Positions 61,365-64,000 of a stretch of DNA of 64,000 nucleotides are shown here, in pieces. The notes beneath the pieces are model-generated. The model was given only the letters and a program-made list of their open reading frames with translations, did no database searches and was not told where the DNA came from. Positions within the stretch are counted from its first letter, which is position 1. Every line of letters starts with the position of its first letter. The stretch is from Xanthomonas cassavae CFBP 4642 (GTDB taxonomy: Bacteria > Pseudomonadota > Gammaproteobacteria > Xanthomonadales > Xanthomonadaceae), in assembly GCF_000454545.1 (NCBI RefSeq), contig NZ_CM002139.1, forward strand, positions 2,635,436 to 2,699,435, read 5' to 3'. The position numbers and the translations under genes are program-made.

Positions 61365-61988
61365 ATGTCCAATGAATTTCGTCCGCTGATCGAGGTCCTG
61401 CGCGAGCTCAGGGCGCTGGCATTGAAGAAGGCGTCCGGCTTTCTGTTTGTCGTCACCGAAGAAAACCACTCCTGCATCGTCCGCCTCAATGCCGGGCAGA
61501 TCGAAGAAGTGGTGTTCCGCATGCTGCGCAATGATGAGGCGGTGCAACGCCTCACCATGGTCGGCGCCGCGAAGGCCCGCTTCCAGGTCGACCCTGGCGC
61601 CGGCCTGGGCAAGCCCTCGCTGTTGAGCGACGACTCGCGTCAGTGGTTGATGGGCGGCTTCGAACAGGACCTGGGCGGCGCGCCGTCCCCGGTCCGCGCG
61701 CCGGTTGCGCCCGCACCTGTTCCGGCGCCGGTGCCGGCGGCATCACCTGCACCTGCACCGTCAGCCAATGGCGGAAGCGGCGCGCCGGACGAGCGCGTTC
61801 GCGACGCCCTGGAAAAGGTCGCGCTGAACTATCTCGGCCCCATCGCCGGCATGCTCTGCGACGAAGCCTGGGAAGCCTCCAGCGACATCGAGCAGGTCAT
61901 CGGCCAACTGAGCGCCAACCTGGCCACGCCGCAGGAAGGGCAGCGCTTCACGACTGATGCGCGCGCCGCGCTGGCCAAACTGCGCTGA
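61365..61988 (+). CDS. Hypothetical protein, likely partner of the Cache-HAMP sensor
   Basis: The 207-residue soluble protein has an N-terminal part (about 1-100) like a PatA/DUF4388-type ligand-free sensor fold: a helix LIEVLRELRALALKKASG followed by beta strands FLFVVTEENHS and IVRLNAGQIEEVVF. A Pro/Ala-rich linker (about 105-145) comes next, then a C-terminal helical domain with LNYLGPIAGMLCDEAWEASS. The GPIAxxL motif and length recall the DUF8082-like tail found in some bacterial signalling proteins. This is an analogy made by eye. It probably shares a transcript with the Cache-HAMP gene. Confidence 0.6.
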   Translation: MSNEFRPLIEVLRELRALALKKASGFLFVVTEENHSCIVRLNAGQIEEVVFRMLRNDEAVQRLTMVGAAKARFQVDPGAGLGKPSLLSDDSRQWLMGGFEQDLGGAPSPVRAPVAPAPVPAPVPAASPAPAPSANGGSGAPDERVRDALEKVALNYLGPIAGMLCDEAWEASSDIEQVIGQLSANLATPQEGQRFTTDARAALAKLR

Positions 61989-62130: not shown

Positions 62131-62534
62131 TCAGGGCGCGGCCGCACACGGAAAGGCTTGCGCCAAGGCGTCGACTACACGCGTTGCTGCGCCTTGGTGC
62201 AGGCGCTCGGCCGGCAGATCGCGTTGAGTAGGTGTAGACCCGATCGACCAGCTCGTGCGCAAGCACCCGCCCGGCCCCGCACCAACGCACACCGCTGGCG
62301 ATATCGGCACCCCCTTCGGTGTAGGCGCGCGCGCATGCTCGAAAGCTGCCGCCGTGCCTGCTCTGGGTGCGCCGGATCGCCCTGCCAGCCCTCCATCGCC
62401 TGCACCAACTCCGCCACGCTGAGGATCCAGGTGCGTCCTAGATCGGGCGGAACCGCCCATGCACCCGGCATTACAGCACACGACAACAACGCGGCCAGCG
62501 TTCGGCAATGAAGTCAGGCGGCAATCGAACGCAT
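62131..62534 (-). pseudogene. Secreted Rap1a/Tai-like protein, broken by a stop and two frameshifts
   Basis: A coherent protein is visible only by joining three frames. From an ATG at 62534, codon 7 is TGA (62514-62516). Beyond it is a signal peptide ending VMPGAWA, followed by VPPDLGRTWILSVAELVQAM and RRQLSSMRA. A slip near 62325-62335, in a GCGCGCGCGC run, shifts to AYTEGGADIASGVRWCGAGR and VLAHELVDRVYTY. A second slip near 62215-62225 leads to LPAERLHQGAATRVVDALAQ and AFPCAAAP, ending at 62131. The order G-x(5-6)-G-x-x-W-C, a long helix, and terminal A-L-x-x-x-FPC is the Rap1a/Tai pattern, a family that includes type VI effector immunity proteins. Independent lesions in a GC repeat argue for decay, though a sequencing error cannot be excluded. 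Confidence 0.7.
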
Positions 62535-62716
62535 ACGCAGTCTCTCAGACGATCGGTGTAGCGCACAGATGCGCAGCCTACCGCGCCAGCATTCGCCCCC
62601 ATCCTAGTGCGGTCGGTCCAGCCGCGATGGCGCGCGGACCGGGATTTCAGTAGTTGGGGCTACGAGCCGGGCACGTTTGGCGCTAGTCTTGCAGTCCATA
62701 TCGCCCAGCCTGTGAG

Positions 62717-64000
62717 ATGACCCTCCCAGCAGCCATCCAAGCCGATCTGTTTCGCCACGTCAGTGCGGAAAAGGCGGCGCTGTACCGTTGCATCATGGGG
62801 TGCTTCGCTGCTGCCAAGCGGCAGTTCCGGCTGCATCTTCGCCCCGATGAGGTTTTGGAGGATGCAGACTGGTCAAAACTGCCCAGCCAAGCCATGCCTC
62901 GGATGGAAGAAGTCCAGACGGCGCTGGCGCAACTGGCGGACTGGGGCAACCTCGAATCCCAGCCAGACACCGCCCGCGTCGCCAGCATCAACGACTTCTA
63001 CCGCGCGCGTTTCGTCTATCGACTCTCGCTGGGCGGCGAGGCAGTGGAGGCCGCGCTGGCAACCTTCAGCCGCACGCTACGCCGACGTGCCGAGCTGCAG
63101 AGCGTCGCGCTCGAGGACATCGCGCTGCGTTTGAAGGCATTGCTGACCCTGGCCGATGCTGCCGAACCAGATGCCGTCAAGGTGCACGAGACCCTGCGCG
63201 ACCTAGTGCGCGTGTTCGAGAGCCTGGCCGACAACGCGCAGGCCTTCATGGCAGGCGTCGGCCGTGGAATCGAACTGCAACACGCCGATGCCGCAGCGAT
63301 ACTCGCCTACAAGAAGCGGCTGATCGACTACCTGGAACGCTTCATCGGCGATCTGGTCGCCCGCTCCGGCGGCATTGCCCAGCACATCCTCATGCTGCAG
63401 TCGTGCATCGACACGCTGCTATGGCTGGCCGCTCAGCGCCAGGCCCGCGACAGCGCGCCGGGCGACGAAACGGAACAACGCGATGCGGTCACGCGCGGCT
63501 GGCACGCCTGGCGCGAACGCTGGACGGGGCTGCGCCGCTGGTTCCTGGCCACTGGCCACGCACCCGCGCAGTCCGAGTTGCTGCGCGCCAAGGCACGTGC
63601 GGCCATCCCGCAGTTGCTGTCGGCCGTGGCCACGATCAACGAGCGCCGCAGCGGACGCAGTGACCGCTCTGCGGATTTTCGAATGCTTGCCGGTTGGTTC
63701 GCCGCCTGCGAGGACGATGACCAGGCCCACCGACTGGCACGCGCAGCGTTCGCGCTCAACCCGGCCCGACACTTCGCGCTGACCCCTGAGCTGGCGTCCG
63801 GCGCGCAGGACCTGCCCGCCAGCACGCCCTGGGCCGAGGCGCCGCCGCTGCGCGTCCACCCGCGCCTGCGCCAATACGGCCAGGCATCGCCACGCGGCGC
63901 ATTGCCACGCGTGCAGACGCGCGAGGCCGAGCGGCAATTGCTGGCCGCCCGGCTGCACGAGGAACATGCGCAAATCGAAGCCGCTCGCCAGCGCCTGGCC
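62717..64000 (+). CDS. jetA: DUF2397 (TIGR02677) protein, Wadjet type II JetA-like, partial at the window edge
   Basis: An uninterrupted frame of 428 codons starts at ATG 62717 and is still open at the last base. It begins MTLPAAIQADLFRHVSAEKA and has YRCIMGCFAAAKRQFRLHLR near residue 22. A long helical middle follows (SINDFYRARFVYRLSLGGEA near 95; QAFMAGVGRGIELQHADAAA near 177). The stretch near 320 reads RSADFRMLAGWFAACEDDDQ and then AHRLARAAFALNPARHF. This order and the D-F-R-x-L-A-x-W-F motif match DUF2397/TIGR02677. In type II Wadjet systems this kleisin-like subunit (JetA) works with JetB (DUF2398), JetC (TIGR02680 SMC-like) and JetD (DUF2399/TIGR02679) to find and cut plasmid DNA. The operon would continue to the right, outside the window. 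The upstream ribosome binding site is weak (TGTGAG). Confidence 0.8.
   Translation, partial: MTLPAAIQADLFRHVSAEKAALYRCIMGCFAAAKRQFRLHLRPDEVLEDADWSKLPSQAMPRMEEVQTALAQLADWGNLESQPDTARVASINDFYRARFVYRLSLGGEAVEAALATFSRTLRRRAELQSVALEDIALRLKALLTLADAAEPDAVKVHETLRDLVRVFESLADNAQAFMAGVGRGIELQHADAAAILAYKKRLIDYLERFIGDLVARSGGIAQHILMLQSCIDTLLWLAAQRQARDSAPGDETEQRDAVTRGWHAWRERWTGLRRWFLATGHAPAQSELLRAKARAAIPQLLSAVATINERRSGRSDRSADFRMLAGWFAACEDDDQAHRLARAAFALNPARHFALTPELASGAQDLPASTPWAEAPPLRVHPRLRQYGQASPRGALPRVQTREAERQLLAARLHEEHAQIEAARQRLA

What the first reader, a model, noticed from the sequence alone, without database searches (positions are those of the whole stretch)
62717..64000. Start of a Wadjet type II-like defence operon (DUF2397/JetA) at the right edge
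A frame open to the window end encodes a DUF2397 protein. In the Wadjet type II gene set, DUF2397 is the JetA subunit of a plasmid-cleaving SMC complex. The N-terminus is intact and the gene sits in an accessory-looking pocket beside broken genes. The family is known, but this copy and its neighbours should be examined as a whole: the system may be complete, decayed or carry extra genes.
Basis: partly seen in the sequence, partly recalled or inferred. Interest (0 to 1): 0.78.

Follow-up and report, generated by a model that had tools for sequence, protein, structure and literature searches.

The report
Complete Wadjet type II anti-plasmid operon
The window ends inside the first gene of a complete four-gene Wadjet type II operon, a known bacterial system thought to find and cut small circular plasmids; the operon is ordinary, but its closest relatives carry an extra helicase-nuclease gene in front of it, of which only a stub is left here.

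Summary
The frame at window 62717-64000 is a DUF2397/TIGR02677 protein (JetA2), 514 aa when followed past the edge. The chromosome beyond the edge holds jetB, jetC and jetD in order, all full length. All four exceed the NCBIfam cut-offs widely. Motor and nuclease motifs are kept, and dN/dS against two or three relatives per gene is 0.11-0.29. A model of the X. massiliensis JetD matches solved JetD-type nucleases best. So this is a complete, coding-intact, known system; activity is untested.

(1) The operon lies between a conserved gene and the 3' end of guaA; in 11 of 19 Xanthomonas stretches these are within 4 kb. A 67-kb integrase element seems to have inserted later between jetD and guaA. 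(2) In the three nearest relatives a 2,210-2,224-aa helicase-nuclease gene (PDC-S37-like) ends one base before jetA; here about 95 bp of it remain, so expression is uncertain. (3) The same helicase (94%) precedes a Wadjet type III operon in another Xanthomonas next to the same conserved gene, and a DUF6119 gene in a third genome at another site.

The parts
62717..64000 (+). jetA (DUF2397/TIGR02677, kleisin-like subunit), the part inside the window; the gene runs on to 64261 (514 aa). The rest of the operon lies beyond the window edge: jetB 64258-65520, jetC 65517-69644, jetD 69670-70971, all + (see the Full report section).
   Evidence: PDB relative 9qe0_E 'JetA' E 1.1e-30
62622..62716 (+). 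stub of the 3' end of a DUF4011-helicase-MTES_1575 nuclease-DUF3320 gene (whole in L010, L011, L012), no longer an open frame
   Evidence: DNA homology to L010-L012 starts at L002 3058-3059; alignment and translation; identity of the whole gene
61365..61988 (+). conserved left-flank gene (207 aa, function unknown), left border of the variable site whose right border is the guaA 3' end
   Evidence: matched in 32 of 35 genomes of the genus, in pieces in one; followed by the guaA 3' end within 4 kb in 11 of 19 stretches read

Best explanation
A complete Wadjet type II operon (jetA-jetB-jetC-jetD) in a Xanthomonas chromosome. JetC dimers joined by the kleisin JetA and the KITE protein JetB would load on DNA and extrude loops with ATP. 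On a small circle the motors run out of DNA and stall, which presents a bent segment to JetD, whose Toprim nuclease cuts it; a chromosome-sized molecule is too long to trigger this. The gene content and the presence of the motifs are shown here. The mechanism is inferred from published work, mostly on type I systems. That the operon is expressed and active in this strain is inferred and less certain, because the gene that heads the operon in its nearest relatives is missing.
For: All four families are matched far above their curated cut-offs, in the standard order. The order is the same in the relatives where it could be measured, among the 80 best loci kept of 131 found: median distance between tblastn match ends 59 bp (A-B, n=79), 38 bp (B-C, n=76), 48 bp (C-D, n=70). 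At columns where one residue reaches 97% in alignments of full-length frames (79 JetA, 76 JetB, 69 JetC, 66 JetD, this copy included; dropped as not full: 2 of 80, 4 of 79, 8 of 76, 5 of 70) this copy departs at one position, JetA S454 for G. dN/dS: JetA 0.11-0.12, JetB 0.16-0.17, JetC 0.16-0.17, JetD 0.23-0.29 (three relatives, two for JetC). The AlphaFold model of the L010 JetD (75% identical) has mean pLDDT 88.8 and finds 8b7f ('Nuclease from C. glutamicum', E 2.4e-6; MksG by recall) and P. aeruginosa JetD 7til (E 8.7e-6) first, then Spo11 and topoisomerase VI. Mechanism: passages of PMC10586767 and PMC12287153.
Against: No expression or activity data. The promoter scan of window 62400-62900 finds no sigma-70-like site (0.1 expected by chance, and weak as a test). 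The operon's head gene is missing here. JetD is the fastest-changing subunit. TM-scores of the JetD model against the PDB hits are low (0.30-0.35 by query length, rmsd above 10), so the domains' relative placing is not supported. The host also holds a 59-kb plasmid-like scaffold with gaps; that size is within the reported 50-100 kb limit and decides nothing.
Confidence: 0.93

Rival explanations
1. The operon is an orphaned, silent remnant: when its head gene and promoter were lost, jetABCD stopped being expressed and has not yet decayed.
For: In L010, L011 and L012 the helicase gene ends one base before jetA, so the native promoter is probably upstream of the helicase; about 95 bp of that gene remain here; no sigma-70-like promoter found in window 62400-62900.
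Against: All four frames are open; one near-invariant residue is changed; dN/dS is well below 1, although this averages over the whole history and cannot show recent silence. The other 77 loci have no close copy of the helicase at jetA, so jetA can be expressed without it.
Confidence: 0.2
2. The helicase-nuclease (PDC-S37/Hhe-like) is a working fifth part of the system, and the window copy is an incomplete five-gene system.
For: The stop of the helicase is one base from the jetA start in three of three nearest relatives. A 94% identical helicase stands directly before jetA3 of the only Wadjet type III found in 35 genomes of the genus.
Against: Of the other 77 loci only L033 has a relative of the helicase (35-42% identical), about 2.7 kb upstream of jetA; several loci hold little upstream sequence. 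In the genus, two of the four DUF2397 matches (G013, G029) lie too near contig ends to show what precedes jetA. A close copy in G020 stands before a DUF6119 gene at another site. Ten more genomes of the genus have only distant relatives (37-44%) whose neighbours were not read. On plasmids, four of four records read have no gene annotated as Jet after it, and none of the four is among the 19 records with a JetA2 relative; JetA3 was not searched there.
Confidence: 0.12
3. The operon is another SMC system (Wadjet type I or III, MksBEFG, Lamassu) or a chromosome-organising complex.
For: All share SMC-like ATPase and accessory parts (recalled).
Against: Type II profiles win by hundreds of bits: JetC2 1476 against JetC1 22 bits; JetA, JetB and JetD match only type II profiles at E <= 0.001. 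A JetD nuclease gene is present, unlike in MksBEF.
Confidence: 0.01

Closest known systems
Wadjet type II (JetABCD; TIGR02677/TIGR02678/TIGR02680/TIGR02679)
   Same: All four subunits, order and motifs.
   Different: Nothing in gene content. Its site next to guaA and the missing helicase head gene are features of this locus.
Wadjet copies of Xanthomonas massiliensis (L010), X. arboricola pv. juglandis (L012) and Endobacter medicaginis (L011)
   Same: JetA 91-92%, JetB 89%, JetC 85-86%, JetD 75-78% identical; one clade in a quick JetA tree, support 0.999.
   Different: They carry the 2,210-2,224-aa helicase-nuclease in front of jetA. In L011 the jetC frame ends after 268 codons although the similarity runs on to the end.
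PADLOC PDC-S37 / Hhe (DUF4011-helicase-nuclease-DUF3320 defence candidates)
   Same: The stub before jetA is the end of such a gene.
   Different: Not intact here.
guaA-flanked defence island #13 of Stenotrophomonas maltophilia (PMC11680222, passages read)
   Same: Same gene as island border; described there as the most diverse in systems.
   Different: Its other border is pgrR; the passages read name no Wadjet type II (they speak of Wadjet I).

Membership tests
Wadjet type II | JetA of the DUF2397/TIGR02677 family | tested here: met
   583.8 bits, cut-off 165.85
Wadjet type II | JetB of the DUF2398/TIGR02678 family | tested here: met
   425.2 bits, cut-off 124.65
Wadjet type II | JetC of the TIGR02680 family with Walker A, signature and Walker B | tested here: met
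   1603.2 bits, cut-off 462.85; motifs at residues 46-53, 1258-1262, 1291-1294 (sequence, conservation; motif names recalled)
Wadjet type II | JetD of the DUF2399/TIGR02679 family with Toprim acidic residues | tested here: met
   415.9 bits, cut-off 196; E299, D348, D350, E416, E417 near-invariant and present; fold match of the L010 orthologue to JetD-type nucleases. No residue-by-residue overlay on 7til was made.
Wadjet type II | Gene order jetA-jetB-jetC-jetD in one operon | tested here: met
   Order and overlaps; that it is one transcript is inferred
Wadjet type II | Restricts small circular plasmids by cleavage | not testable with these tools
   Needs an experiment
Wadjet type I / type III | Subunits match type I or III profiles best | tested here: not met
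   JetC1 22 bits against JetC2 1476; no type I or III hit at E <= 0.001 for JetA, JetB, JetD
PDC-S37 / Hhe helicase system | Full-length DUF4011-helicase-nuclease-DUF3320 protein | tested here: not met
   About 95 bp left here; no match at E <= 1e-50 in the host genome

The most novel reading that the evidence does not exclude
The DUF4011-helicase-MTES_1575 nuclease-DUF3320 protein is an exchangeable helper that works with SMC plasmid cutters of more than one type. In two Xanthomonas records and one Endobacter record it ends one base before jetA of type II, and in another Xanthomonas the same gene (94%) directly precedes jetA of type III, beside the same conserved flanking gene. It might unwind or trim the linear plasmid left by JetD, or widen the system to phage DNA. 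The window copy would then be a Wadjet that has lost its helper.
Probability: 0.13. Interest if true: 0.6.

Novelty: new member of a known kind. Interest (0 to 1): 0.3.

Why it matters
Wadjet bears on why some bacteria hold no small plasmids and resist transformation. Type II systems are less studied than type I (PMC10586767, passage). A complete copy in a Xanthomonas is useful to anyone working on plasmid uptake there. The wider point is the neighbourhood: type II Wadjet lies at the guaA 3' end or in a guaA-bordered island in two Xanthomonas and in four of 80 other loci, and one helicase-nuclease gene precedes both type II and type III Wadjets, which makes a testable case for a shared helper.

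Tried and rejected
Fifth gene inside the operon: none; jetA/jetB and jetB/jetC overlap by 4 bp and 25 bp separate jetC and jetD. Decay: no stop or frameshift in the four frames; the one odd near-invariant residue is JetA S454. PDB search with JetD alone, with a 30-sequence JetD profile and with JetB found nothing by sequence; the fold search of a JetD orthologue filled the gap for JetD only. Wadjet on plasmids: a near-DNA search of the locus found none. A tRNA as integration site: none in L002, L003, L092, L093; the site is the guaA 3' end. guaA as a general rule for this clade: not shown, since no guaA was found in the stretches held of L010, L011 and of G013's Wadjet (L146). Small-plasmid test of activity in the host: undecided. 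Contig C7 (59,352 bases, with gaps of N, no terminal repeat found) has plasmid genes and two relaxase regions and may be more than one molecule; contig C1 (10,432 bases) holds mainly one 2,585-aa frame plus masked bases and was not studied further; C2-C5 read as N throughout. An E. coli copy of the helicase-jetA junction: none. Wadjet type III in 328 genomes of the order: none at E <= 1e-20, without a positive control in that draw. A looser att search in G001 gave a 4-mismatch site of no weight.

Full report
Observation. The frame at 62717-64000 (+) is open to the edge and its 428 residues match JetA2 at 559.5 bits. The host genome is held as G000; the window is C6:2635436-2699435 of a 5.27-Mb assembly. 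I read on to the right. In window coordinates continued past the edge: jetA 62717-64261, jetB 64258-65520 (420 aa), jetC 65517-69644 (1375 aa), jetD 69670-70971 (433 aa), all + (starts chosen by me). The products score 583.8, 425.2, 1603.2 and 415.9 bits on TIGR02677, TIGR02678, TIGR02680 and TIGR02679, with cut-offs 165.85, 124.65, 462.85 and 196 (jetB, jetC and jetD were scanned from earlier in-frame starts). PADLOC calls them JetA2, JetB2, JetC2 and JetD2. This is a complete Wadjet type II operon.

Host. The genus is Xanthomonas by inference: a genome of the same genus (G001) has a contig of the same length, 1,301,316 bases, as X. arboricola pv. juglandis CFBP 2528, and its helicase is 100% identical to that of this record. 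The species was not identified.

Integrity. One search found 131 relatives of JetA in species genomes and kept the best 80. Where two neighbouring genes could both be measured (79, 76 and 70 loci for A-B, B-C and C-D) the order is constant and the gaps are mostly short. On alignments of full-length open frames (79 JetA, 76 JetB, 69 JetC, 66 JetD including this copy; dropped as cut or not full: 2 of 80, 4 of 79, 8 of 76 and 5 of 70) this copy keeps every residue that at least 97% share, except JetA S454, where the others have G. The motor motifs of JetC and the acidic residues of JetD are in place; motif names are recalled. Against the nearest relatives dN/dS is 0.11-0.12 (JetA), 0.16-0.17 (JetB, JetC) and 0.23-0.29 (JetD).

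JetD as a nuclease. No solved structure is found by sequence. The model of the L010 orthologue (mean pLDDT 88.8, pTM 0.60) finds 8b7f ('Nuclease from C. glutamicum'; MksG by recall) and P. aeruginosa JetD 7til at E 2.4e-6 and 8.7e-6, then Spo11 and topoisomerase VI with weaker E-values. TM-scores are low (0.30-0.35 by query length) with rmsd above 10, so the relative placing of the domains is not supported. JetA and JetC have solved relatives named JetA and JetC in 9qe0/9qe1; JetB gave none with phmmer.

Mechanism. From passages of two papers (PMC10586767; PMC12287153): JetABC senses circular DNA of less than about 50-100 kb, by a loop-extrusion model, and JetD cuts it; most of this work is on type I. 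I apply it to this copy by homology.

Distribution. In the genus 4 of 35 genomes match DUF2397, one of them as a 182-aa frame near a contig start. Of 299 genomes drawn from the order 4 pass the cut-off, and of 398 drawn from the phylum 2 do, this genome being one in each draw. The pattern is patchy, as for a mobile defence system. In PLSDB 19 of 72,556 records hold a relative of JetA at E <= 1e-5; the smallest is 148,985 bases. One 11.85-Mb entry among them is surely not a plasmid. That fits a system that cannot live on a small circle, but I did not correct for which hosts are in PLSDB.

Site. The gene left of the operon (61365-61988) matches in 32 of 35 genomes of the genus, in pieces in one of them. 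I took up to 20 kb to its right in 19 of these genomes (the twentieth stretch was G013's Wadjet). In 11 of 19 the 3' end of guaA follows within 4 kb, in two more at about 10 and 18 kb, and in six it was not reached within the stretch; two of those six end early at a contig end. One of the six, G001, reached guaA at about 25 kb when read further; another, G004, did not within 30 kb. In the host guaA lies 76.5 kb away. A copy of the guaA 3' end (attL-like, window coordinate 71513 if continued past the edge) lies about 540 bp after jetD; it is the only further site with at most 3 mismatches in 85 kb, against 0.08 expected per simple shuffle. Next to guaA is a tyrosine integrase gene, and the 67 kb between the two sites include a TraG_N gene. 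I read this as a younger element that inserted between the Wadjet operon and guaA; the operon itself is outside the present att-to-att unit. The right end of the element is scaffolded over gaps. In G001 (X. arboricola) the order is left gene, helicase, jetABCD, an integrase 57% identical, guaA. Among the 80 loci guaA is also found near the operon, with its 3' end facing jetD, in L017, L019 and L040 (within about 0.75 kb) and L022 (3.2 kb): 4 of 80, many loci being cut short. It was not found in the stretches held of L010, L011 and L146. A guaA-bordered defence island is known in Stenotrophomonas (PMC11680222, passages). A search for papers with both 'guaA' and 'Wadjet' gave two: that one and PMC13231603, of which I saw the listing only.

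The missing head gene. DNA similarity to L010, L011 and L012 starts 94-95 bp before jetA. In those three a 2,210-2,224-aa frame ends one base before the jetA start. In L010 and L012 it carries DUF4011, AAA_11/AAA_12 helicase, MTES_1575 nuclease and DUF3320 domains; L012 scores 1280 bits on PDC-S37 and 601 on Hhe. Here the last codons of that gene are still recognisable over about 24 residues, and the rest is not an open frame. Whether a deletion or an exchange of modules made this junction is open: similarity of G004 and G020 to L012 ends at nearly the same place (L012 9877 and 9918; this copy starts at about 9905).

The same helicase elsewhere. Of 35 genomes of the genus 13 match at E <= 1e-50, but only three at 94-100% (G001, G004, G020); the other ten are 37-44% identical and their neighbours were not read. 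In G004, 3.4 kb from the same left-flank gene, it is followed after 24 bp by the longest jetA3 frame (the profile match starts at residue 41, so the true start may lie about 100 bp further on), then by JetC3 (2192 bits) and JetD3 (375 bits): a Wadjet type III. I did not identify a JetB3 there. An integrase 56% identical and a guaA-end-like site follow. That is the only JetA3 relative among 35 genomes at E <= 1e-20. In G020 the helicase is at another site and a DUF6119 gene follows. On four plasmid records read, of 333 with a match, genes annotated as hypothetical, AAA family ATPase or IS5 transposase come next. Four of 369 genomes of the class had matches at E <= 1e-200; I fetched them but did not analyse what follows. 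So the helicase is best seen as a front gene that several modules share; that it helps Wadjet is possible, not shown. In the library no paper holds 'Wadjet' together with 'DUF3320', 'Hhe system' or 'helicase-endonuclease fusion'; one holds 'Wadjet' and 'DUF4011', the latter as a border gene of a P. aeruginosa hotspot (passages). Most subscription papers are not held.

Verdict. Ordinary in kind, well preserved, with an interesting neighbourhood. New member of a known kind.

Noticed in passing
L045:4700-9150, L046:9100-13320, L053:12700-17150 (L049 looks alike by eye): One clade of type II Wadjet loci (support 1.0 in a quick JetA tree) carries a TrlF-family ATPase gene (560-577 bits, cut-off 350) and a second gene (Schlafen AlbA_2 + HATPase_c_4 domains in L046, the one scanned with Pfam) between jetB and jetC. 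No paper in the library holds both 'Wadjet' and 'TrlF'.
   Followed up: partly
L034:4400-9400; L032:12747-13537; L021:11488-12325: Other inserts at operon joints: a helicase C-terminal piece and a HATPase_c_4 gene (L034, jetB-jetC), an HI0074 gene with an MntA-like gene just below its cut-off (L032, jetB-jetC), and an 836-bp gap between jetA and jetB (L021). Five of 76 measured jetB-jetC gaps exceed 400 bp, one of 79 jetA-jetB and none of 70 jetC-jetD.
   Followed up: partly
L002:13101-14555 (window coordinates 72665-74119, beyond the edge): A phosphoribosyltransferase-like gene (weak PsyrT match, E 2.3e-7) followed 3 bp later by a protein with a C-terminal HTH_37; its N-terminus looks SLOG/DprA-like to the eye (recalled, not tested). 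Possibly a PsyrTA/ShosTA-like pair.
   Followed up: partly
L002:15713-18349 (window 75277-77913, beyond the edge): An 878-aa AAA_13 ATPase matching the PADLOC candidate PDC-S06 at 734 bits.
   Followed up: no
L002:18415 to L003:884 (window 77979-80448, beyond the edge): An Mrr_cat-nSTAND3 type gene (PDC-S73-like) present as two separate pieces, one with an undetermined base.
   Followed up: partly
G000:C7 (L009, L090, L091): A 59-kb plasmid-like scaffold with gaps in a host with an intact Wadjet. Its first 16.2 kb match best seven Xanthomonas plasmids of 19-30 kb (of 2,323 records with a match); a TrwC-type relaxase gene lies elsewhere on it, so it may be more than one molecule.
   Followed up: partly
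L011:12801-16925: The Endobacter medicaginis jetC is 86% identical over its whole length, but its frame ends after 268 codons, so this copy looks broken (or has a sequence error); a 91% identical JetA there also suggests recent transfer or a misassigned contig.
   Followed up: no
L017:18273-19000, L019:18250-18850: Between jetD and guaA lies DNA that reads like a small sigma-factor-like gene and looks shared by both loci (read by eye).
   Followed up: no
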